Source: Tachypleus tridentatus
Lineage: Eukaryota; Arthropoda; Merostomata; Xiphosura; Limulidae
Assembly: GCF_004210375.1 (NCBI RefSeq)
Contig: NC_134837.1
Span: forward strand, 155,351,310 to 155,415,309
Direction of reading: 5' to 3'
Length of the DNA stretch: 64,000 nucleotides
The translations under genes and the position numbers were made by a program. This document shows positions 978 through 63,417 of the stretch, in pieces (the first letter of the stretch is position 1; each line of letters opens with the position of its first letter). The notes beneath the pieces were generated by a model. The model worked only from the letters and a program-made list of their open reading frames with translations. It was not told the origin of the DNA and ran no database searches.

Positions 978-1238
978 GAATTTCGCACAAAGCTACTCGA
1001 GGGCTATCTGTGCTAGCCGTCCCTAATTTAGCAGTGTAAGACTAGAGGGAAGGCAGCTAGTCATCACCACCTACCGCCAACTCTTGGGCTACTCTTTTAC
1101 CAACGAAAAGTGGGATTGACCGTCACATTATAACGCCCCCAAGGCTGAAAGGGCAAGTATGTTTGGTGTAACGAGAATTCGAACCTGTGACCCTTAGATT
1201 GCGAGTCTAGAGCCTTAATCACCTGGCCATGCCGAGCC
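978..1238 (-). mobile_element. SINE family 1, full length
   Basis: On the - strand: tRNA-like head (TGGCCAGGTGATTAAGG; box B region TTCGAATTC), conserved middle (GTTGGTAAAAGAGTAGCCC, GATGACTAGCTGCCTTCCC) and tail GCACAGATAGCCCTCGAGTAG..TTTGTGCGAAATTCC. A second, isolated copy of the tail (GAATTTCGCGCAAAGC) sits at 936-951 beyond a T-run. Confidence 0.92.
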
Positions 1239-2017: not shown

Positions 2018-2130
2018 GGTTTGTTTTCCTTATAGCAAAGCCACAGCAGGCTATCTGCTGACCCCACCGAGGGGAATCGAACCCATGATTTTAGCGTTGT
2101 GATTTTGTAGACTTACCGCTGTCCAGAAGA
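2018..2130 (-). mobile_element. SINE family 2
   Basis: Short tRNA-related SINE. In + orientation it reads AGCAAAGCCACAGCAGGCTA, CCACCGAGGGGAATCGAACC and TTTAGCGTTGTGATTTTGTA. The box B-like GGTTCGATTCCCC is on the - strand. Confidence 0.85.
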
Positions 2131-3826: not shown

Positions 3827-3990
3827 GTGTTTGTGTTTTTCTTACAGCAAAGCCAAATCGGACTCTCTGGTGAATTTACCGAGGGTAATCAAACCACTGA
3901 TTTTAGTGTTGTAAATCCGTAGACTTACTGCTATACTACGACCTTCCAATTACGAATCTAGCGCCCTAGCCTCATAACTACACCGAGCCA
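3827..3990 (-). mobile_element. Chimeric SINE: family 2 body with family 1-like head remnant
   Basis: Family 2 matter (ACAGCAAAGCCAAATCGGAC, CCGAGGGTAATCAAACC, GTTGTAAATCCGTAGACTTA) is followed by ATTACGAATCTAGCGCCCTA and ACACCGAGCC, which look like the head of family 1. Nested insertion or template switching are both possible. Confidence 0.65.
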
Positions 3991-7290: not shown

Positions 7291-10200
7291 ATTAGTGACC
7301 ACCTGATCATTATGCATTCCGAGATTTATAAATGATTATACGCAGCTAGGATGATCATTAGGTCAAGTACCCAATGAGTAAAAACACTGAAAATAATTTC
7401 TTTCCAAGCTATTAAATGGTATTTATCAGTGTATAAACTGCATTTTATGATTTTCATTTCATTACTATGAAGCTAAGACAGCTGTTTCCATTAAAGGTAA
7501 TGTTTAGCGCATCACCAATTTTACAACTTGATTTGATAGCTAAGAGCTTGAAAACTCAATTTAAAGGATATTGCGTACCAGAAACCTTGGGAAAATTAAA
7601 AATATATAAACTTCGTACAGTATGTAGAAATTAATATACAAATAAGTACAAGTAATCACTTGTAATTGAATAAGTAACTGTAATAAGTAATTGAATTCAA
7701 TAAACAATTCTGTTGATTTTCAAAACCTATTCAGTGTCAGAAATGAAAATTGTTGCATCTATTCTCTTCTTCATTTACTTAGTGAGTTAACATGTTTTTT
7801 ATTGATTGTAAGCAAAATTATACGTAAGCTAGGCGTACATGCAATTAGTCTGAATTTCTGTTGAAACGTTAGGCCTAAATTTGTTTCAGAGTTTATGTTT
7901 AAAATGTTTTTGTACAATTAGGCCTATAAATGAACGTGAATATAAAAATTTATACAAAAATTAAATTAATTCGTTAGTATTGCATGGACTGAACTTAATA
8001 TTTACCAAATAATACAAAAAAACAAAGGATAGAATAACATACATAGTATGAAAACTATAGCATAAACAATTAAGAAACATTGATTAACACGATAAGGTGG
8101 CTATTGATCACTAGCTGATCAGTGGCCAGATCATTTTACCATAGTTATATAACTGTCAGAAGTCATAACTAATTTTTTACCACTAGATAAACTCGATTCA
8201 CTACATTCAATACGTTAAGACACAAAACATTATCTCAAAGTATATTTGAAACAATTTCTTTTGGTATGTAATTCTTCTGTACTTTTTTTTTTTTCTTTGT
8301 TGATATCATTTTGTCCTTCTGCTTCGTTGCATAATTCTTCTATACATTTTTTATAACTTTCCTGATCTTACCGCGATAAAACTTATTTTTATTTGTAATT
8401 CGTTTGGCATTAATGTCTTCTTTTTTATTTTTTGTATTGTTCTTTTTGGTTTTTTTAGTTTGTTAGTTATTTCTTATACTCCTCTCTCTTTATTCTTGAT
8501 TATATTTCTATATTTAATTAATTTCACCACATTTTAGTTTGTTAGTTATTTCTTATACTCCTCTCTCTTTATTCTTGATTATATTTCTATATTTAATTAA
8601 TTTCACCACATTAGATCATCTTGAAGTTGAGTTGTTTTTTTTTAATAATCATGTTTTTTACACTAGTGTTGTAATGATGTAAATAATTTAAAATTATAAG
8701 TAGTAATAATACACAGCTCTGTTCATTCATTGATAAATAAAATGCATTATTTTTTCCACTATAAGTTTCGTAACTTACATGGTTTCAGCAACAAAGCATA
8801 GATCTAAATTCACAAATAATTAAATACCTCAAAAGAAATTCTAGTTGTTATTCTTCTCATACATATAAATACTTCTTGCATCGCTAGTAGACTATTCGAA
8901 CAAAAAACTAAAAATTTACAGACCTGAAATAACTAACTGAATAATCAAATTATAAGTTCATCTAATTTTGCATATTTCATATCATTCAAATAATTTCCTA
9001 CATTTTATAAATTGTTGCAATCATTATTTGCCATACCCTCATCATAAACGTCAGAAACTCTCCCCATTTCGAAAAATTACAAACATTTTCTTTAAAGCCT
9101 CCTAGTAGTTCAGCGGTTTACAAGTTTCTGGGCTTATGATGTAAAAATTCGATAACCAAGTTACACACAGCACAAATTGCCTATTGGTAGCATTGGCTTA
9201 ACAACTTATAAAACAAAACCTAATTTAGAAAGAAAAAGAAATATTACTCTATCACTGAAAAAAACAAACAAGATTCGAATTCACCGTTAATGGACTACAG
9301 TTTAGCGTAGTGGATAACAAATACCATATGTCTTTAGAAAATGGATCATTGGAAAAAACAACAACTCCTGTCCTACTCCAAAACCGTTAGGTTCAAATCA
9401 CACTGACAGTCCTTCTCAGAGTCATACATTTCAAGATGGCAGTATATTTACAGCAGAAAGTCTTTCGGTCGGGCTTTATTAAGTGTCTAAGTTGATGTCA
9501 TCAGTGTTCTGGGACAAATTGTTCGGAGTACGTAACTTAGATATAACAATTTCTAAATGATAAACGACGGCCAGAGTTTTCCAAACCACATAACTTATGG
9601 AGTTTGTGTTAAGTTTTTCCAGTAAAATAAAGAAATAAACAATTTTGATTAATTAGTAAACATTTATATTTTGAAAATTTGTTATTAGCTGATTTCTCCA
9701 TTACTTTTCACATATAGAAATATCCAAAATAGCATGACGTCGTAATCAAGTGTTCTCCTTTATGGTTATTTATTTTTTTAGACAATAATTACAAACTTAA
9801 AAAAGAAGAGAGTCTAAAATCAATCCGGGAAGTAGATAATTTGATCTTATACTACCCCAAACACAGGGTGTCAAAAGTTATTTTGGCTATCTTCATTTGG
9901 AACTTCTAATAAAATCAGTATTTTTAGGCACATGATTTCCTTTATGCATACATCTAATGTAGATATTTAAATTGCTACATTTTGTTGTATCGTTATACGC
10001 GACAGCCAAGACGTTTGTTATTAGTAACTGGAAGGGTAAGATTATGTTACATTCTTCAATAAAAACTCATTGAACAAGAAATTGCATGATATCTTTTACT
10101 TCAGTTTTGCTTCATATGGGAATATATAAAATGCGTTATGCTTTTCCCACTGTATTTAATTCCCACCATGTTAAGATGATTAAGATATGGTAGATTTGAA

Positions 10201-10296: not shown

Positions 10297-10548
10297 TCCG
10301 CAACAGAAATGTGGTTATGGCTCTCAACTCGTAATCTGAGGGTCACGGGTTGGAATCCCCGTCGCACCAAACATGCTCGCCATGGTGGCGTTATAAGTTA
10401 CGATCAATCCCACTATTCGTTGGTAAAAGAGTAGCTCAAGAGTTGGCGGTGATGACTAGCTGCCTTCTCTCTAGTCTTACACTGCTAAATTAGAGACGGC
10501 TAGCGCAGATAGCCTTGCTGTAGCTTTGCGCGAAATTCAAAACAAACC
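10297..10548 (+). mobile_element. SINE family 1, nearly full length, + orientation
   Basis: Head with CTCGTAATCTGAGGGTCACG and box B GGGTTGGAATCCC, middle GTTGGTAAAAGAGTAGCTCA, tail GCGCAGATAGCC..TTTGCGCGAAATTC then AAAACAAACC. The 5' start is diverged. Confidence 0.9.
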
Positions 10549-12899: not shown

Positions 12900-14275
12900 A
12901 ATTTAAGAGAAAAGTTGGGAACCTCATAATTGATGAATACCATGGATCAGAAAACTTTTATCCTAGAGTTCCAAAGGAACTAAGGTTTTATTTGTGAACC
13001 ACAAGCTAATATTTTTTGTATATCATTGAGCAATAGAGGACTATTAGAAGATTGGAAATAGGCAAATGTTAATCCAATATTTAAGGGAGGTGTTTATTCA
13101 GGTAGTTAGTTTTACATCAGCATTTGAAAAAGTTTTGGAGAGTGTGATCAAAGATCTATTGCAGAGTCACTTAAAACAGTTTGATACAGTGTCAGAGAGC
13201 CAGCATGGTTTCACAATGTGAAAATCTTGTTTAACAAATTTTCTGATATTTTTTGAGGATATCACTGCAAGATTTGATGAAGGAAATACTGTAAATTTGG
13301 TTCACTTTGGTTTTCAGAAAACATTTGATAAGGTGACTCACAGAAGACGTGTGCAAAAATTAAATCTGTGGGTGTGGAGGAATCGTTATTAAATTGGACA
13401 GAAAATTGGAGTGGAGAGTGGTTGAAGTTGGATCTCATTGGATCACAGTTAAAAGTGGTGTGCCTCAGGACTTTGTGCTAGGGCCCGTGTTGTTTTTGAC
13501 ATATTAATGAGACTGACTCTGGAATGACTAACAACATATTGAAATTTGCAGATGACAATAAGTTATTTGGCAGATGGTGTTTAACTATCCAAAATGCAAG
13601 GTGATGTATGTAGGTTTTCACAGTTAAAGTTATTGTTACAATTTAAATGGGAATACATTAAATACTGTGGTTGAAAAAAATCACTTAAATCATCTAAATA
13701 GTCTATTGTAGTTAGAAATTGGGCTAATAGGATTTTAGGTAGTATTTATAAAAATATTGAATACAAGAATAAGGGATATTATTGTTTCACTGTATAGATC
13801 AGTTGTAAGGATTCACTTAAGAGTGCCATGTACAGTTTTGGTCTCCCTTCCTTAAGAAGGACATTGAGTTGTTGGAGAAGGTTCAAGAGAAGACCTGATA
13901 GGATTATACTTGAGATGGTGGGATTGTCCTGTGAGGAGAGACAAATCTCTGATATACTTGTTTTCTCTGGAGAGGATTTGATTGGAGTGTTTAAGATTAT
14001 TATTGGTATTGATAAACTAGGTTTAGCAGTGAAAACAATAAAAACAAGGTGTCATAAATTCAAATTTTGGCAGCAGAGGAGTCATCTGCAGTTTATAGAG
14101 TAGTATTGTTCAAACCTGATGGTTAGTTAGCTTTTGGAATGAGCCATCTTCAAGAGTGGTAGAGGTAGAAAATACGAGTTCAAGAAAAAAATAAAGAAAT
14201 GCATTAATAAGGGGTGGTTATAGTTGGGACATTCTTGTGGGCTAATAAACTCATTTTTGCCCTTCTAAAATTGTA
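12900..14275 (+). mobile_element. Decayed CR1/L2-group LINE fragment (reverse transcriptase)
   Basis: Translations in shifting frames give the ordered RT wording of CR1-type elements: LTSAFEKVLESVIKDLLQ-like matter, SESQHGF, KSCLTNFLIFFEDI, FQKTFDKVTHRR, SGVPQDFVLGPVLFLTY, ILKFADDNKLF, then the C-terminal LYRSVVR and RRPDRIILEMVGLS..ER and GVFKIIIGIDKLG (13828-14103 is the longest open piece). FADD is the catalytic aspartate box. There is no 5' part and several frame breaks. The 3' end is placed at about 14275 by loss of any resemblance and is uncertain. Confidence 0.8.
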
Positions 14276-14533
14276 TGAAATTTATGACAGTGGAATACTG
14301 ACTCACTCAGTCATTCTTTTGCTTTGTTTTGCTAAGTCTCCATTGACTCCATGTGAATTATGTAATTGTTAATATGCATAAAAACTTTCATAGTCATAGA
14401 CTTAATTCACTATTATTTTAATATAAGCTTGTGTACAGTACACATAGTACAAAGTAATACAGTACATTTTGTGAATGTAAAATCATATAGGAATGGTATT
14501 AGCAGTGCAAGAAATAATGGAAATAATAATATT

Positions 14534-14907
14534 GGGATGATATAGCTATACCTAGATCACCCCTACATTACTTTCAATATTAAAATTTAACATTGCATAT
14601 AAAATGTGCAAGTACAAAATGGTTATAAGGTCATTTCATTTAACTGACCTCATATAGAATCACTAGTAATAAAGATGTTTTGACTTAGCTTGCATTCCTT
14701 TGTACATAAGTCCTAGGATTTTAGTCACACTACCATAACACTTACCTTGATATGACTATGATATATTGATAAACATCATACCAATATTTAGAAATAGATA
14801 ACTTCAACTGCAGTAATATTGAGTTCAAATGTGTATTTTACAACGTAACATGAAATGTTAATATTGAAAGTCATGTATGGATGATCTATGTATAGCTGTA
14901 TCATCCC
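14534..14907. repeat. Inverted repeat (49-bp arms) / fold-back sequence
   Basis: The left arm 14534-14582 and the reverse complement of 14859-14907 agree at 44 of 49 bases (both begin GGGATGATA and end ACTTTCAATATTA). The 276-base spacer is AT-rich. No target duplication or transposase was seen. It could be a MITE-like element or a palindromic duplication. Confidence 0.8.
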
Positions 14908-14943
14908 TATAGTCTTGTTTGCATTCTTTTTGACACTGCAATC

Positions 14944-14963: not shown

Positions 14964-16209
14964 AAATATTTTTAATTAGTTGCTTTGAGACATTTTTTTT
15001 CCTGACTGAAAGTTGGAGAATTCTATGAATATATTTTATAAAATTCAATATTATATGCATTGATTTATTTTTCTAACTTCATACATAATGAAGGGGTTGT
15101 CTCCCCAGAGACACCAGCTGTTTAGTGTGCAAAAAAGCATAGAGTATTCTATATTTTAATCATCAAATGTTCACCTATTGACTGCTAATTCCTGTTTCTC
15201 CCTGTACTTAAACTTTTTAAATGAACACCAGCTACTGTCACTAAGCACCATTGTGCATTGCCCAGGAACCCACAGAATAGATTTAGGTTTCAACTGATGT
15301 CAGTAATAAAGTAGTTCTAATGTTATCTAAATTAAAAGAAATATGAATAATTTGGTGGGTTGGTCACTGTCCAGTGGTATTTTATTGGTGGTTTCTGGCC
15401 TTGCTTTTGAGCATGTTGGGTAGAGAGACAAATGAAAGTAATTTTAAAAGCAAACAAAATTAAATAAATATCATATTGGATTAAGTTCACAACCAGTACA
15501 TCTTCTACCACCAGTTCCAAAGTCACATGGGACAAGATTTGAAAGGTCAGTGGGCAATATGATTGTCCCCCTCTCAACCTTGTTCTCTGATGGCCAGGAA
15601 GTAGCTGATACTCTAGGTGAAAGCTTTTGCTGGGAATTTAGCACTTCTGCTTTTTCCTTCATAGCCATCAAGACTCGGGCAGAGCATTCACCTTTTTCTT
15701 TTCAAGCTGATTGTCTCTATGACTATAAAGGTCCATTTATACTGGTGAAACATAAACTAGCCTTTCATTGGTTTAGCATACATCAATTGGACCTGATGAT
15801 GTACACTATGAAATGCTGTTCCATCTATCTCTTGCTTCTCTTGCTATTCTTCTGATTGTTTTTAACCAGATCTGGCAGAAGAATGTTTTTCCTGATGCCA
15901 GGCTGTTGTCCCACCTTTCTCTAAGCTTGGGAAGAATCCCAAGATTCCTTCAAACTACCTTTCAACTGCTTTGACGAGCTGTCTCTGTAAGACTTGGTGA
16001 GGATGGTTAATGCCTGTTTTGTTCTGGGAATCAAACAACCTCCTTTACCCACCCAGTGTGGGTTCTGATGACAGGGCTCCACCATGGACCACGTGATTTG
16101 ACTTGAAACATCAGTCACAGAAGCCTTTCTCAACCAACAACATCTTATATCAACATTCTTTCACATTGAGAAGACTTATTATACAACATGGAGGTATGGC
16201 ATTTTATGA

Positions 16210-16212
<3 letters not shown>

Positions 16213-16240
<28 letters not shown>
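16213..16240. repeat. (AT)n microsatellite inside the I-group LINE
   Basis: About 14 AT dinucleotides interrupting the decayed RT region of the LINE. Confidence 0.95.
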
Positions 16241-18182
16241 GGGTTACTTGACTATTTGCCTATTTTTATTAAACATTTTTTAATGGACATGCGATTCCAA
16301 GTTCATGTGGGTTTGACACTTTTCCGTTTTTCTCCACAGGAACTTGGAGTCCCTCAGGGCTGTGTTTTGAGTGTCACACTTTTCAGTATAAAGATTAATG
16401 CTATCATTGAAGAACTTCCTCGTACTATTGCAAAACTGGCTCTATGTGGAGGACTTTCACATTTCATCTCAGTTGTTGATCATGAGGTATATTGAGTGGC
16501 AGCTTTAGACTGCCCTCAATCAATTACTAAAGTGGACCACAACAAATGGCTTTAACTTCTGTCTCTCTAAAACCATTTGCATGCACTTTTGCTGCCAATA
16601 TGGTATTCACCCTGATCTTGAACCCCGTATCAGTGAAGTTGTACTGCCTGTGGTCCCTGAGACAAAGTTCTTGGGGCTTATCTTTGACCGTAAGCTAACC
16701 TTTATACCACAAATCAAGCAGCTACAAGTCAAATGTACAAGAGCATGAACACCCTCTATGTCGTCTCTTCCACCACTTGGGGAGCTGATCATTGTTCTGT
16801 GCTAAAAATATATCGTGCTCTGATTCGATCGAAACTTGACTATGGATTACTGGTTTATGGCTCTGCCACGACCTCAGCCTTAAAGAAGCTGGGCCTCACT
16901 CGTCATCAAGGACTTCTGCTTTGCACTGGGGCTTTTCCTAACTTCAGAGTTTATACATAGTCTCACAAACCTTCTTTGCACCTCTGCCGTTTGCAACTGT
17001 CTTTGCTGGGGTTGTGTTTTTCTACCTCAGTGGACCATACTTTTCAGAACAGACAATCTGCCATTGCTCCTTTTGGCCTTCATATCCAGGTACAGTTGGA
17101 TAAATTGTGTCTGTCCTTGGATAGCATTGCTGTATCCACTGGTCAGCCCATCCTACCATGACTTCTTACAGTCCCCAAATGTGACCTATCTTTAAGTCAT
17201 CCAAGAAAAGCAGACACTTGTGATTGGAAATACTGTCTGTTATTTGCTAAACATCTTTCAAACCATCCTCCCATTCCTATTTATACAGATTGTTTGAAAT
17301 CAGGTGACTGTGTGGGCTCTGCTATTGTTTGTTGTGGTTCAGTGGTTGCATGCAGAATCCCCTCTACCGCTTCTATGTTCACTGCTGAACTGTATGCCAT
17401 TTCTTTTGCCCTGGATCACATTGAAGCTAAGCAGTACTCAAATTGCACTATTTATACTGACTCGCTTAGTTCTCTACTGGCCCTGGAATTGCTTCATGTT
17501 AGTTCACACCATGTTCTTGTGATGTTCAAAATCGACTGCCCCATTTCTCTTTAATATCTACTTCTATCCAGTTTTTCTGGATACCGCGCACGTTGATGTT
17601 TGCAGGAATGAGCTCACAGACACTGCAGCTAAATCTATCTGCCATGGCACTATCACTGCTGTGCCTGTTCCATACATGGACTATGGTCCTGTATTCAAGG
17701 CTCGGCTCCATGCCAGTTGGTAGTCGACTTGGGGTGAGCAATGTGAAAACAAGCTTTTCCAAATAAAATCCTTTATTGGACTTTGGGTGTCTTGCTTCCA
17801 TAAGGATCAGAAAGATGAAGTTGTTCTAACTAGACTTGTCATTGGTCACAGTTTTTAAACTCATCATTTTCTGGTATCTGGGACTGATGTATCAATGTGT
17901 AGTCTGTGTAACACTGAGATCACAATAAGCAACATTTTACTGTGTTGCCATCATTATGACTCGCAACGACAACACCATTTTAAACATGTTCTATCCCAAG
18001 GTTTATCCATAATGTTAGACAGTGTTATTGGTGATGGTGACACTGTTCACCTTGGAAATGTTTTTAGTTTTTTAAAGGCCATTAATTTTTTTAATGCTAG
18101 TTGTTTTTTAATTTATACATTAGACCTTTTTTTAATGTGATTCCCTTTTAATAATCAAAGTCCATTTAGTTTGATTTGAAAT

Positions 18183-18475
18183 TAGAAAATGGCTGTAATG
18201 TCAAATAACTCTAAACCAGGACTGGAAAGGCCAACTTAAGGTGACTAAAACTGCTGTTTGAACTACCTGTTAGTCTTCCTGGCGAGTTATAATTAAAATG
18301 TTGCTACAAGTCTTTTAAAACTTTTATTACTTTCTGTAAATGACCATAACATCAAATAACTCTGAACCAGAACTGGAAAGGCCAACTTCAGGTGACTAAT
18401 GGTGGTTTTTGAACTTGTGTTAGTCTTCCTGGCGAGTTATGATAATTATAGTTATGCTACAGAAAGTCCCTTACA
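18183..18475 (+). repeat. Two-copy tandem repeat (about 151 bp) in LINE 3'UTR
   Basis: Two units share TCAAATAACTCT, CTGGAAAGGCCAACTT and GTTAGTCTTCCTGGCGAGTT at a spacing of about 151 bases (for example TCAAATAAC at 18201 and 18352). They lie between the LINE ORF remains and its 3' tail. Confidence 0.85.
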
Positions 18476-18633: not shown

Positions 18634-18688
18634 GGCACAGATAGCCTAGTTGTTTTGTGCCATAAAACACCAAACTAACCAACCAACC
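18634..18688 (+). repeat. LINE 3' hairpin and (ACCA)-rich tail
   Basis: GGCACA (18634-18639) pairs with TGTGCC (18656-18661) around a loop containing GATAGCCTAG. It is followed by ATAAAACACC and a TAACCAACCAACC tail. The layout and loop match the 3' ends of the SINEs in this window, which is why it is annotated separately. Confidence 0.7.
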
Positions 18689-37140: not shown

Positions 37141-38891
37141 AATATGTACAATTTAGTACCATTTATTGAATGTAAATATAAACATTCGTAATTTCACACT
37201 GTGCATTCAAAATTCAGATAATTATAAAAATAACTATCGTATCTGGAACAATCATAAATGTATCGCAGAACACGATTTAAAAGTACTCTCCTTACAAGAA
37301 CACCACTTTCAATGGGATTGTAAAAGAGAATTTGATAATAGCTTCATTCTCATAGTTTGTAAATATGGTATTAAATGTATAAAAACATCACGTCAACGCA
37401 ATCTGACTTGTTTTCTCGCGCAATACTTTCCAGTAATTTTTTTTAAAGAAAATGTGAAGATTTTCTAAGTTTTAATAAGGAATGAATGCTATAATTAGTA
37501 ATTACTAGCATAAACGGCTATAACAGAATTGCGTTTCTTCTAATAAACTTAAATATCATCTGAGGGGCGTCAAAATTTTTACCACATTGTTATCTATCTG
37601 CTTTTTATTTTTTTATATAAGCGTTGTAGTAAATATGGCAAATGTTCAACATAAACAGCAGTTTAATCAACAAAAATGACCAAAAATACCGTTAACAGTA
37701 AGATATCTAACTGATGACAGTTTGTTCTAAACATTATAGTCAGCTTGCTTTGGAGAGAATTCTACACAATGGATTCGGGAACTCAATCTGGAAATTACAA
37801 CAATGGATATAGTGGTACAGTATTGGAACTGACAATAATACGATCTTGAAACTTAACAGATAATATAATGCAACGTTGGAGCTATAACAGATGCAAGAAA
37901 AGCAGCTATGAAATTATACGGTTGGATGCAGTGACTTAATCTTGAATCTATAATAACGGGCAATAGTAAAGTCTTAAAACTATTACATTGGATGAATTGG
38001 TGCGGTCCTGAGACAGTACAGTTAAATATAGTGATTTATTTTTGAAACTATAACAGTAGATAGAGTAACACAGAAATTTGGAAATGGGTATTGTAAAATA
38101 GCCTTGAAATTGTAACGATGATAACCTCCTAGTCAGTGCTGACACCAATATATATAACCTCTGCTTTGAAATACTATGAAGCATTTTGCCGGGACAAGCA
38201 TGGTTGTTTTCGAGATTTACTTGCTAACAAGTTTGTCTGAAGTAGCAATGGATTCTGACTCCCTATAGCTTAGATGGATGATCGAGTAATCTTAATGTAA
38301 TGTAAAAAATGCTGTCCTAAAATCATCGATTTCCTCAAATTAATGAAGTATTACATTGTCTTTGCTGACTCGTTTTGATTTACGTACAAGAATGGACTTT
38401 ATTTAATGCAATAGTGCTACCTTGAAAATCACTCTTGTGCGCTTTAATACTAATTTCTGAACTTTTAGTCCTAAGCATCAAGTGTAATGGTGGAAACAGT
38501 GGATGTACTGTCACATAATTGTTCTCACTTTTATCTCTGGTTACACTTATTCTCCCTAAGAAGCAAGTTGTTTGTTGCTGTAATGATTATATATATATTA
38601 TTCAAAGTATTTTTGTAGTCTTTAGTATCTCATCCAAGATTTTTTTTATGAGGTGGCCCTTTAATATCTCGTGAGTTTACAGTACCATTAACTTGATCTT
38701 TTTAATGTGTTTTGGTAGTCAATATATGCGTAGGTCGTTCTTTTATTAGTTGCATGATCATATCTTCAATTGCTTGTATCACATCCATTCTGAATTTCAG
38801 TTGCATGCAGGTAATTTCTACAGTCAGGAATAATGAGATAAATTACTTCATTTCATTTTTTCTTGAAACTGGCAGTACTTCTACCTCATTG
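37141..38891. other. Intergenic, CpG-richer
   Basis: No gene recognised; 37166-37468 is an unsupported ORF. Repetitive-looking phrases such as GAAACTATAACAG and AATATAGTG recur around 37.75-38.1 kb but do not form a clear array. Confidence 0.5.
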
Positions 38892-39143
38892 TATATTGTT
38901 GGACATGATTTTACTTTGCAGATGCTGACTTCCTGTATTGTTGGACACCATTTTACTTTGCTGGTGCTTACATCCTGTATTGTTGGACATGATTTTACTT
39001 TGCAGATGCTGACTTCCTGTATTGTTGGACACCATTTTACTTTGCTGGTGCTTACATCCTGTATTGTTGGACATGATTTTAATTTGCAGGTGCTGACATT
39101 CTGTATTGTTGGACACGATTTTAATTTGCAGGTGCTGACATCC
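38892..39143. repeat. 42-bp minisatellite, six units
   Basis: Six units of exactly 42 bases begin at 38892, 38934, 38976, 39018, 39060 and 39102, each with ATTGTTGGACA near the start and TGCTGAC/TGCTTAC near the end. Units 1-4 alternate two variants (GATGCTGACTTCC and TGGTGCTTACATCC endings), so the array partly grew as an 84-bp dimer. Because 42 is a multiple of three, both strands have spurious open frames. I see no evidence that either is translated. Confidence 0.95.
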
Positions 39144-40140
39144 TGTTCTTTTACGTGTTTGCGTTACCGTTCAGAGAGCAGATGATGGTTATACGTATAA
39201 AGTATTTATTTCACAATTTGCTTGCTATGAAATGGTGGAGAATATGTTTGATAAATGTTTCTCTCTCTCGATAAAACTGTAATGAAGGCATAAAAACGGG
39301 AAGTATTTGCATAATTTAATATCGTGTTAATAATGAGATAAGTAAAACAGCTGTTGGATTTATTTAGGTAAAAGTATTAAAATTAATAAAGTAGATTTAT
39401 CTCTATTAACTTTGGAATAATCTATCTGTTAAACTTAAGTAAACCACCTAGCTTCAAAGTGATGGAACAAGAAAAATTAGTGAAAGATGTTACATTTTGG
39501 AGCAACAGACAAAAAATAACTACGTTTGTATAAATGAAAAGTGATTAGGTAAGAATATAACTTATTTATTGAATTTCTCAAGTAAGGAATGGTGGAGGAG
39601 AGAGTCAATCTTATTTATGATGATTATTAACAGCAACACAGAAGATTTACTTATTTCTATATAGTGTGTTTTTCTTCAGAAGAGATTTCTTTTTAGTTTA
39701 TGTAATTAAACTTACGTCTCATAAGGTCATGAGAGGGAAAATAGATATAGTAATTTTAATTTATTTTATGAAGCCTATATTTTTACCATTTTATCATAAA
39801 TTTCTTTTACCCTGGAAAGTGCTGGCTAAAGTGTTCTAATAATAATAATAATCTTTTCCCGCTTCGTTAAGTTTCTGAGTTTTGTTTATTTGCCACTCAA
39901 ATTTCATATGCTGTCTTTGACATTTTTAACTTGTTCAAAGAAAAGCATTTATTAGTAGTGCTTACAGTCTACTTGAAGTGGTCATTAGTGTGCCAGTACC
40001 CTCATTATTTCATATATTTTATGGAACAACATGAACTAAACAACACATTAATTAAAGAGACTAAGATTCACGAACGAGTGCAACATGCCTCCGTCACATG
40101 ATCCCAATAGCATCTAAAGCTGTGTACCACTACTTAAGGG
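39144..40140. other. Intergenic, nothing recognised
   Basis: AT-rich DNA with a short (TAA)n tract near 39840. No gene or named repeat. Confidence 0.55.
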
Positions 40141-40254
40141 TGTGTTTTACTTATAACAAAGTCACATCAGGCTATTTGCTGTATCCACCAAGGGCAATCG
40201 AACCCTTGATTTTGGCACTATAAATCCGAAAACCTACTATTGCCCCAGCAAGAG
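40141..40254 (-). mobile_element. SINE family 2
   Basis: Reads ATAACAAAGTCACATCAGGC, CCACCAAGGGCAATCGAACC and CACTATAAATCCGAAAACCT in + orientation, the diagnostic blocks of the family. Confidence 0.8.
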
Positions 40255-40508: not shown

Positions 40509-40645
40509 TTTGAATTTCGTACATAGCTATAGGAGAAGGGGGGTCTATCTGAGCTAACCGTTCCTAATTTATTAGTGTAAGTAGGAGATAGCTAGTCATC
40601 ACCATCCACCGCCAATTCTTGGGCTACTCTTTTACCAACGAAACC
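40509..40645 (-). mobile_element. SINE family 1, truncated (no head)
   Basis: Tail and middle only (TTTTGAATTTCGTACATAGC, AGCTAGTCATCACCATCCAC, TGGGCTACTCTTTTACCAAC). The tRNA-like half is missing. Confidence 0.82.
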
Positions 40646-42676: not shown

Positions 42677-42943
42677 GCCCGGCATGACCAGGTGGTTAAG
42701 ACATCGACTCGTAATATGATGGTCGCGGGTTCGAATCTCCGTCACACCAAACGTGCTCGCCCTTTCAGGCGTGAGGGCATTATAATTTGATGGCCAATCC
42801 CACTATTCGTTGCTAAAAGAGTAGCTCACGAATTGGTGATGGGTGGTGATGACTAGCTGCCTTCCCTCTAGTCTTACACTAGAAAAGTAGGGACGGCTAG
42901 CGCAGATATCCCTTGAGTAACTTTGCGCGAAATTCAAAACAAT
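42677..42943 (+). mobile_element. SINE family 1, full length, + orientation
   Basis: Starts GCCCGGCATGACCAGGTGG (box A region), with box B GGGTTCGAATC, complete middle, and tail GCGCAGATATCCCTTGAG..CTTTGCGCGAAATTC then AAAACAA. One of the best-preserved copies. Confidence 0.93.
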
Positions 42944-43860: not shown

Positions 43861-44104
43861 GATATGGCCAGGTGGGTTAAGGCATTCAACTCGTAATCTG
43901 AGGGTCGCGGGTTCGAATCCCGATCACACCAAACATGCGTTAGAATGTGACGGTCAATCCCACTACTCGTTGGTAAAAGAGTTGCCCAAGAATTGGCGGT
44001 GGATGGTGATGACTAGATGCCTTTCCTCTTGTCTTTGCTAAATTAGGGACAGCTATAACAGATAGCCCTCGAGTAGCTATGTGCGAAATTCAAAAAACAA
44101 ACAA
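43861..44104 (+). mobile_element. SINE family 1, + orientation
   Basis: TGGCCAGGTGGGTTAAGGC, GGGTTCGAATCCC, GTTGGTAAAAGAGTTGCCCA, CAGATAGCCCTCGAGTAGC and an A-rich end. A short block between the head and the middle is deleted. The small ORF over it is a by-product of the SINE. Confidence 0.92.
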
Positions 44105-44470: not shown

Positions 44471-44588
44471 CAGTCTGGCACAGTGGTAAGGCTACGGATT
44501 TACAACGTTAAAATCAGGGGTTTGATTCCACTCGGTGGACACAACAGATAGCCTGATGAGACATTGCTCTAAGAAACCACACACACAA
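44471..44588 (+). mobile_element. SINE family 2, + orientation
   Basis: Head TCTGGCACAGTGGTAAGG (box A-like), box B-like GGGGTTTGATTCC, tail ACAGATAGCCTGATG..TTGCTCTAAGAAACC ending in a short (AC)n. It shows the family in sense orientation and that it too carries CAGATAGCC near its 3' end. Confidence 0.87.
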
Positions 44589-45104: not shown

Positions 45105-45367
45105 ATTTGTTTGTTTTCGGAATTTCGCACAAAGCTACTCGAGGGCTATCTGTGCTAGCCGTCCCTAATTTAGCAGTGTAAGACTAGAGGGAAGGCAGCT
45201 AGTCATCACCACCCACCGCCAACTCTTGGACTACTCTTTTACCAACGAATAGTGGGATTGACCTCACATTATAAGCCCCCACGGCTTGAAGGGCGAGCAT
45301 GTTTAGCGCGACGCGGGCGTACTCGGATTACGAGTCGCACGCCTTACGCGCTTGGCCATGCCAGGCC
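45105..45367 (-). mobile_element. SINE family 1, full length
   Basis: + strand reads TTTGTTTGTTTTCGGAATTT, CTCGAGGGCTATCTGTGCTA, the complete middle, then a head with several changes ending GGCCATGCCAGGCC. Preserved tail. Confidence 0.92.
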
Positions 45368-48826: not shown

Positions 48827-49065
48827 TTGAATATCGCGCAAAGCAACACGAGGGTTATCTACGCTAGCCGTCCCTAATGTAGCGCTGTAAGACTATAAGG
48901 AAGGCAGCTGGTCGTTACCACCTACTCTATCAACGAATATTGGAATTAATCGTGACATAGCGCTCTCACGCCTGAATGGGAGAGTATGTTTAGTGCAACG
49001 AGGATTCGAACCAGCGATCCTCAGGTTACGAGTCGAGCGCCAAAACTACCTGACCACACCAGGCC
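48827..49065 (-). mobile_element. SINE family 1
   Basis: TTTTGAATATCGCGCAAAGC, GGGTTATCTACGCTAGCC, GATTCGAACCAGCGATCCTC, ACCACACCAGGCC. Part of the middle is deleted. Confidence 0.9.
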
Positions 49066-62879: not shown

Positions 62880-63002
62880 TGTTTGTTTGAAGTTAAGCAC
62901 AAAGCTACACAATGGACTATTTGTGATCTGTCCACCACAGGTATAAAAACTGTTTCTAGCGTAGTAATTTCGCGGGCATATCTTGTACTACTGGGAGAGG
63001 GG
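62880..63002 (-). mobile_element. SINE family 3
   Basis: TGTTTGAAGTTAAGCACAAA, GCTACACAATGGACTATTTG, GTCCACCACAGGTATAAAAA, CTGTTTCTAGCGTAG, CTGGGAGAGG. It is better preserved than the copy at 45.7 kb and defines the family with it. Confidence 0.75.
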
Positions 63003-63156: not shown

Positions 63157-63417
63157 GTTTGTTTGTTTTGAATATCGCACAAAGTTATCTGTGCTAGCCA
63201 TCCCTGATTTAGCAGAGTAAGTCTAGAGAAAAGGCAGCTACTTATCACCACACACCATCAACTCTTTTTTTTTTACCGACGAATAGTGTGATTAATCGTT
63301 ACATTATGACGCTCCCATGCCTGAAAGGGCAAGCATATTTGGTGTGTAGGGAATTCGAACCCACTCTCCGTAGATTGTTGCGAGTCGAGTTTCCTAACTA
63401 CCTGGCCGTGCCGGGCT
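63157..63417 (-). mobile_element. SINE family 1
   Basis: TTTGTTTTGAATATCGCACA, TCTGTGCTAGCCATCC, CACACACCATCAACTC, GGAATTCGAACCC, CTGGCCGTGCCGGGC. A T-run interrupts the middle and the CTCGAGGG part of the tail is lost. The small ORFs here are by-products. Confidence 0.9.

What the first reader, a model, noticed from the sequence alone, without database searches (positions are those of the whole stretch)
18634..18688. An I-group LINE and the SINE families share a 3' hairpin with a compensatory base-pair change
The LINE 3' end reads GGCACA-GATAGCCTAG..-TGTGCC followed by ATAAAACACC. Family 1 SINEs end GCGCA-GATAGCCCTCGAGTAGCT-TGCGC followed by GAAATTCAAAAC. The loop word GATAGCC is kept, and within the stem an A-T pair in the LINE is a G-C pair in the SINE, so pairing is preserved. 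Family 3 (CACAGATA..TTTGTGC) and family 2 (ACAGATAGCC..TTTGC) follow the same plan. Tail sharing between SINEs and a partner LINE is a known route for mobilisation in trans. Here the LINE remnant and three SINE families seem to use one tail fold in the same 64-kb window.
Basis: partly seen in the sequence, partly recalled or inferred. Interest (0 to 1): 0.7.

Follow-up and report, generated by a model that had tools for sequence, protein, structure and literature searches.

The report
Shared tail hairpin of LINE and SINEs
A mobile element that makes its own copying enzyme and three kinds of short mobile elements that do not share one small RNA hairpin at their ends, which has changed in paired steps that keep it folded; this is a large, clear example of a known kind of parasitism.

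Summary
The hairpin is real and where stated (18634-18661, tail to 18688). In the unnamed 2.17-Gb genome it ends a LINE family and very many SINEs. All eight family tails compared keep an outer stem and 16 invariant letters; GATAGC is not in the terminal loop of any of ten predicted folds.

The compensatory pair is genuine but not LINE against SINE. LINE tails: A-T 976, G.U 1412, G-C 359, unpaired A.C 55. SINE family 1: A-T 37,989, G-C 14,981, G.U 3,729, A.C 2,593. The same pair changed in both partners. RNase H is found in LINE copies of both stem types.

Beyond the finding: 11 of 27 G-C-stem LINE-type insertions, but 0 of 29 A-T ones, consist only of hairpin and tail (about 45 bp); 6 of those 11 have clear target-site duplications. 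One SINE1 body is fused to a LINE tail inside a single duplication.

Tail sharing, and compensatory stems in it, are known from other LINE/SINE pairs. This is a new, very well populated member of that kind. The hairpin-only insertions are the least expected part. Binding by the LINE protein, and the partnership itself, are inferred.

The parts
18634..18661 (+). LINE 3' hairpin, A-T state of the changing pair
18662..18688 (+). LINE terminal tail ATAAAACACC + ACCA-like repeats
16097..16492 (+). decayed reverse transcriptase piece upstream of the tail (RVT_1, E 8e-5, 22.8 bits, below the cut-off of 29.6)
17162..17551 (+). decayed RNase H piece (14 bits, below cut-off here; above it in other copies L090, L026, L021)
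10502..10532 (+). SINE family 1 tail hairpin, G-C state
42899..42929 (+). SINE family 1 tail hairpin, G-C state
44055..44085 (+). SINE family 1 tail hairpin, 5' arm decayed
45126..45156 (-). SINE family 1 tail hairpin, A-T state
984..1014 (-). SINE family 1 tail hairpin, A-T state
48835..48865 (-). SINE family 1 tail hairpin, decayed
40518..40555 (-). SINE family 1 tail region, decayed, longer loop
3482..3512 (-). SINE family 1 tail hairpin, decayed
63176..63195 (-). SINE family 1 tail with most of the loop deleted but both arms of the A-T stem kept
44539..44584 (+). SINE family 2 tail region, decayed
2018..2063 (-). SINE family 2 tail region, stem AGCA/TGCT intact
40139..40184 (-). SINE family 2 tail region
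3830..3875 (-). SINE family 2 tail region, decayed
62890..62936 (-). SINE family 3 tail region (ends approximate), 5' arm decayed

Best explanation
The hairpin is the 3' recognition element of a stringent-type, RNase H-bearing LINE lineage. tRNA-derived SINEs (families 1, 2 and 3) carry a copy of it, so that the LINE protein reverse-transcribes their RNA by target-primed reverse transcription. What is kept is the outer fold plus the core letters CAGATAGCC...GCTTTG; outer-stem letters may change if pairing is kept. One outer pair has moved between G-C, G.U and A-T in the LINE lineage and between G-C and A-T in SINE family 1. Shown: shared core and outer stem, paired change with controls, RNase H in LINE copies of both stem types, hairpin-only insertions with target-site duplications, one SINE/LINE-tail chimera. 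Predicted only: the inner stem AGC/GCU and the AU bulge. Inferred: that the LINE protein binds this hairpin, that the SINEs are copied by this LINE, and that CpG decay plus selection for pairing drives the change.
For: LINE-type tails: G-C 359, G.U 1412, A-T 976 (with one extra fixed T), A.C 55; about 150 A.C would be expected if the arms were independent (my arithmetic from these four counts). SINE1 in a fixed 34-base context: G-C 14,981, A-T 37,989, A.C 2,593, G.U 3,729, odds ratio 58.9. Control: the equivalent CpG-type double change at the neighbouring pair (C-G to T-A) counts 186. SINE1 consensus sequences of the two states (42 and 10 copies) differ at 3 of 130 columns: the two members of the pair and one loop base. 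Eight family tails on one structure: 96.2% of 79 cells paired, 3 pairs changed on both sides (12 of 500 shuffles reach this), covariation score 5 of 500; slid structures 27-55% paired. RNase H above the 25.8-bit cut-off in G-C copy L090 (32.1) and A-T-stem copies L021 (27.0) and L026 (35.9). G-C and A-T LINE copies are alike upstream of the tail, up to 0.886 identity. Chimera L098: SINE1 body fused to LINE hairpin and tail, flanked by CTTTTACACT/CTTTTATACT, 0 of 64 null pairings as good.
Against: No LINE with the SINE1 loop (CCTCGTGTA) and tail (GAAATTCAAAAC) was seen in the 99 sequences held, so the partner of SINE1 and SINE3 may be another or an extinct subfamily. In 35 unselected SINE1 tails the pairing excess at this pair is weak (27 of 35 paired, 91 of 2000 shuffles as high). 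One of five measures shows nothing (further pair types, 412 of 500 shuffles), 7 of its 10 pairs never vary (all three inner pairs among them), and the outermost pair is unpaired in 3 of 8. The inner AGC/GCU pairing with the conserved GCUUUG is the minimum-energy fold in 5 of 10 folds; in the others AGC pairs with a nearer triplet. Single-sequence folds of SINE hairpins are not much better than shuffles (z -1.2 to -1.6). The chimera is one case.
Confidence: 0.85

Rival explanations
1. The paired change is only neutral CpG decay of dead copies: both arms contain CpG, so G-C would drift to A-T without any constraint.
For: Both arms of the G-C stem hold CpG; A.C and G.U copies of SINE1 exist in thousands.
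Against: The matching double decay at the neighbouring CpG pair is about 200 times rarer (186 against 37,989). A-T is the commonest state, 6 of 10 A-T copies differ by 2% or less from consensus in the body outside CpG, and the two halves are strongly associated. CpG decay may still supply the mutations.
Confidence: 0.05
2. The LINE and the SINEs share the tail only by old descent or convergence, and the SINEs are moved by another LINE.
For: SINE1 and SINE3 share a tail end (AATTCAAAACAAC) that differs from the LINE's ATAAAACACC, and their hairpins are 3-4 bases longer.
Against: 16 positions are invariant among 8 family tails. SINE2's end (ATAAGAAAACACAC) resembles the LINE end. L098 joins SINE1 to the LINE tail in one insertion.
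Confidence: 0.1

Closest known systems
UnaL2 (eel) and zebrafish ZfL2-1/ZfL2-2, stringent-type LINEs of the L2 clade
   Same: A 3' stem-loop decides template choice; in ZfL2-1/2 the stem can be swapped if the loop is kept, a broken stem abolishes movement (ZfL2-2), and a bulged base in the UnaL2 stem matters (PMC4176376: abstract and passages read).
   Different: L2 clade, with the loop as the specific signal; here an RNase H-bearing lineage with the conserved letters flanking the loop, and no functional test.
Maize/sorghum L1-clade LINE with ZmSINE2/ZmSINE3
   Same: LINE and SINE 3' ends form a putative hairpin with compensatory changes in the stem and conserved loop letters (PMC3747384: section 4.3 and passages read).
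   Different: Plant L1 clade, different sequence; here the change is seen within one SINE family in tens of thousands of copies and within the LINE family.
I-clade LINEs (I factor, MosquI; recalled)
   Same: RT followed by RNase H (recalled for the clade).
   Different: Clade not tested by a tree; the hairpin was not compared with I-clade tails.

Membership tests
SINE/LINE tail-sharing pair of the stringent type | 3' end of the SINE homologous to the 3' end of a LINE of the same genome | tested here: met
   Shared hairpin with 16 invariant positions among 8 family tails; LINE-type and SINE copies in the same genome.
SINE/LINE tail-sharing pair of the stringent type | Conserved stem-loop supported by covariation | tested here: met
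   Outer stem; weak in the 35-copy sample. Inner stem never varies, so untested.
SINE/LINE tail-sharing pair of the stringent type | LINE protein requires the stem-loop for movement | not testable with these tools
   Needs a retrotransposition or binding assay.
I-group LINE | RNase H domain | tested here: met
   Above cut-off in 3 of 6 locus pieces (L090, L021, L026), just below in L077 (25.1 against 25.8), no match in L038 and L023.
I-group LINE | RT in the same element | tested here: inconclusive
   RVT_1 match below cut-off (22.8 against 29.6 bits) in the window copy, upstream of its RNase H piece; other copies were fetched only 1.5 kb upstream.
I-group LINE | Place in the I group on an RT tree | not tested
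   No reference RTs were held and no full RT sequence was fetched.
tRNA-derived SINE | 5' tRNA-like head with A and B boxes | tested here: inconclusive
   B-box-like GGTTCGAATCC and GGTTCGATTCC are visible in heads; ARAGORN, run with the bacterial code, finds no tRNA in the window.
tRNA-derived SINE | Short insertions flanked by target-site duplications | tested here: met
   32 of 35 SINE1 rows measure 246-265 bases from head to AAATT; duplication score 8 or more in 16 of 35 rows, some of them duplicates of one locus.
V-, CORE-, Deu-, Ceph- or MetaSINE superfamily | Superfamily central domain | not tested
   No reference central domains were held.

The most novel reading that the evidence does not exclude
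The hairpin is itself a mobile unit: a roughly 28-base hairpin RNA with a short tail, cut out or protected by the LINE protein, is inserted alone as about 45-bp retroposons with target-site duplications. This happens mainly for the G-C-stem version, which would make it among the smallest retroposons known and a footprint of the protein on its RNA.
Probability: 0.15. Interest if true: 0.65.

Novelty: new member of a known kind. Interest (0 to 1): 0.45.

Why it matters
Tail recognition by LINE proteins has been worked out in L2-clade elements (PMC4176376). Here nature has run a stem-swap experiment in an RNase H-bearing lineage: in SINE1, tens of thousands of copies in paired states and few in broken ones, and the same pair changed in the LINE. 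It separates letters that must be kept from letters that only have to pair. The hairpin-only insertions may show where the copying enzyme stops or what it protects, and can be surveyed by genome search.

Tried and rejected
Rejected: GATAGCC as the loop; A-T as the LINE letter and G-C as the SINE letter (both in both); neutral CpG decay as the whole cause. A mean-based age test for SINE1 states was not significant (p 0.19) and the rank test is borderline (p 0.054, on values rounded to two decimals), so the order G-C then A-T is only suggested for SINE1. For LINEs the nearest-neighbour identity is higher in A-T (median 0.892, n 31) than in G-C (0.834, n 14; p 0.0004), but the copies were chosen by exact hairpin and rows are not independent. 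Rfam found nothing in the window at the gathering threshold. A PDB sequence search of one RNase H piece (L077) found nothing at E 0.01. Paper searches (lists capped at 12-20 where more papers held the terms) showed no title or abstract start on this hairpin or on hairpin-only insertions. A search for four of the letter strings gave 19 papers, none with a transposon title; I did not open them. Searches also asked for horseshoe crabs because, from memory only, the SINEs look like those of chelicerates; the organism was not identified. One script timed out and one failed; both were redone.

Rows dropped: 28 of 93 SINE1 rows (gaps); 5 of the remaining 65 had other letters at the pair. In the hairpin-only tally L094 (a SINE1) and loci L088 and L096 (same flanks as L087 and L095, by eye) were left out of the 30 G-C loci, and L032 (as L031) out of the 30 A-T loci; L025 and L026 share a flank and may be one event, giving 28. 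L087 (unclear) and L098 (chimera) count among the 27 but not among the 11. L006 and L007 are two further cases from another search (8 loci fetched), cut inside the 5' arm.

Full report
What is there. At 18634-18661 (+) the window reads GGCACAGATAGCCTAGTTGTTTTGTGCC, and then ATAAAACACCAAACTAACCAACCAACC to 18688. Upstream lie broken pieces of a reverse transcriptase (16097-16492, Pfam RVT_1, E 8e-5, below cut-off) and an RNase H region (17162-17551, weak here).

Shape of the hairpin. Ten typed tails were folded, nine of them family or window tails and one a mismatched control. In all ten, GATAGC lies outside the terminal loop. In five (a second LINE type with loop CTTGTA, both SINE1 states, SINE3, SINE2) the fold is an outer stem that includes the G of GATAGCC, a two-base bulge AU, an inner stem AGC/GCU made with the conserved GCUUUG, and a variable loop. 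In the other five (the main LINE tails) AGC pairs instead with a nearer triplet. On an alignment of eight family tails 16 positions are invariant. Under the first plan 96.2% of 79 cells are paired and three pairs have changes on both sides (12 of 500 shuffles reach this; covariation score 5 of 500); sliding the partner by 1-3 columns drops pairing to 27-55%. One measure, further pair types, shows nothing (412 of 500). Seven of the ten pairs never vary, among them the whole inner stem, so the inner stem is a prediction without covariation evidence. The outermost pair is G-C in LINEs, A-T in SINE3 and unpaired in the other three. SINE2 has a stem two pairs shorter, so its columns depend on the alignment.

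The pair that changes. Counted over the whole genome, LINE-type tails with the outer G-C pair occur as A-T 976 (which fixed one extra T), G-C 359 (4 of the 100 listed have a SINE1-like loop), G.U 1412 and A.C 55. By eye the commonest loop in the printed rows differs between the three paired states (59 of 100 rows printed; none). The unpaired state is rare. In SINE1, with a fixed 34-base context, the counts are G-C 14,981, A-T 37,989, A.C 2,593 and G.U 3,729. If the arms varied independently one would expect 5,546, 28,554, 12,028 and 13,164; the odds ratio is 58.9. Both arms of the G-C form contain CpG, so decay alone could mimic some of this. The matched control, the double CpG-type change at the neighbouring pair, counts only 186. 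The consensus sequences of the SINE1 states differ at 3 of 130 columns: the two members of this pair and one loop base, the latter also variable within the G-C state (14 of 42 have the A).

A caution on small samples. Among 35 unselected SINE1 tails, the pair is standard in 27 against a shuffled mean of 23.8 (91 of 2000 shuffles as high). The genome counts carry the argument, not this sample.

Order of events. A-T copies of SINE1 look younger (median body divergence 1.8% in 10 copies against 7.1% in 19; rank test p 0.054, mean-based test p 0.19). A-T LINE copies are closer to one another than G-C LINE copies (nearest-neighbour medians 0.892, n 31, and 0.834, n 14; p 0.0004, rows not independent). 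Both point from G-C to A-T in both partners, and the large G.U class of LINE tails is the expected step between. Whether the SINE followed the LINE, or both drifted the same way through CpG decay under the need to pair, cannot be told here.

Which LINE. Of six locus pieces, RNase H is above Pfam's cut-off of 25.8 bits in a G-C-stem copy (L090, 32.1) and in two A-T-stem copies (L021, 27.0; L026, 35.9); G-C copy L077 is just below (25.1), and A-T copies L038 and L023 give no match. G-C copies resemble A-T copies upstream of the tail, up to 0.886 identity. The two stem states therefore belong to one kind of LINE. I-group membership is plausible from RT plus RNase H but was not tested by a tree.

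SINE families. SINE1 is very common (43,758 exact G-C-arm hairpins of any loop). Copies measure 246-265 bases in 32 of 35 rows, and 16 of 35 rows have target-site duplications (10-14 bases) scoring 8 or more, some rows being duplicates. SINE2 and SINE3 share, by eye, a similar short tRNA-like head followed directly by the hairpin; their ends differ. SINE2's end resembles the LINE's ATAAAACAC; SINE1 and SINE3 share AATTCAAAACAAC, for which I saw no LINE in the sequences held.

Hairpin-only insertions. Of 27 separate G-C LINE-type events among the 30 fetched loci, 11 show no similarity to any other copy upstream of the stem (best extension score 4.5 or less, within the shuffled range of 1-10.5); of 29 A-T events, none are like this (Fisher p 9e-5). 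The other copies match LINE 3' sequence for at least 34 bases, most to the 160-base limit examined, except L087, which is unclear, and the chimera L098. Target-site duplications: 6 of these 11 score 8 or more (7 of the 15 tested, which add L006, L007, L087 and L098), against 0 of 47 longer copies, whose 5' ends lie elsewhere, and 1.9% of 210 mismatched pairings; L054, L074, L079, L089 and L095 show no clear duplication. Genome-wide, 136 of 359 G-C tails are preceded by the LINE's TTT, in line with 11 of the 30 fetched loci. At least the cases with duplications are real insertions of about 45 bases. Ordinary extreme 5' truncation is the cautious reading; a stop at the stem base, or protection of the hairpin by the LINE protein, would explain a peak there. 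Why the A-T sample lacks them is open: two A-T-type cases (L006, L007) from another search are cut inside the 5' arm, which the 30-locus pattern could not have caught.

A chimera. In L098 a SINE1 head and body (from 159 bases upstream) runs straight into a G-C LINE hairpin and LINE tail, and CTTTTACACT / CTTTTATACT flank the whole (0 of 64 null pairings as good). One insertion event thus held both sequences, as expected if the same enzyme copies both (template jump) or if a SINE1 RNA had taken over a LINE tail. It is one case.

What is known. Stringent-type LINE proteins of the L2 clade need their 3' stem-loop; stems can be exchanged if the loop is kept, a broken stem fails, and a bulged base matters (PMC4176376, abstract and passages). 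Compensatory stem changes between a plant L1-clade LINE and its SINEs are reported (PMC3747384, section 4.3). So the principle is known. New here, as far as my searches went, are the lineage, the scale, the same pair changing in both partners, and the hairpin-only class. The searches cover one library of open papers, and I saw listings, not all the papers.

Noticed in passing
L070, L072, L080, L084, L086, L092 and others (G000), at the centre of each locus: About 45-bp insertions made only of the LINE hairpin and tail, with target-site duplications; frequent among G-C stems, absent from the A-T sample.
   Followed up: partly
L098, minus strand, from 159 bases upstream of the hairpin to the end of the tail: SINE1 body fused to a LINE hairpin tail inside one target-site duplication.
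   Followed up: partly
38852-39187: 42-base tandem repeat, copies 66-97% alike over 126-base frames.
   Followed up: no
8453-8610: Exact tandem duplication of 79 bases.
   Followed up: no
18187-18264 and 18338-18415: The LINE 3' region contains two copies of a 78-base repeat, 83% alike.
   Followed up: no
13222-13389: Fragment that looks by eye like an RT of another LINE type; no Pfam match.
   Followed up: partly
14502-14588 and 14853-14939: Inverted repeat, 83% complementary, 264 bases apart; possibly a small DNA transposon.
   Followed up: no
63176-63195: SINE1 tail whose loop is mostly deleted while both stem arms stay complementary.
   Followed up: no
L031/L032, L025/L026, L095/L096 (about 80-150 kb apart); L007/L008, L087/L088 (about 2 Mb apart): Pairs of loci that look by eye like the same insertion with the same flanks; recent duplications or assembly of both haplotypes.
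   Followed up: no
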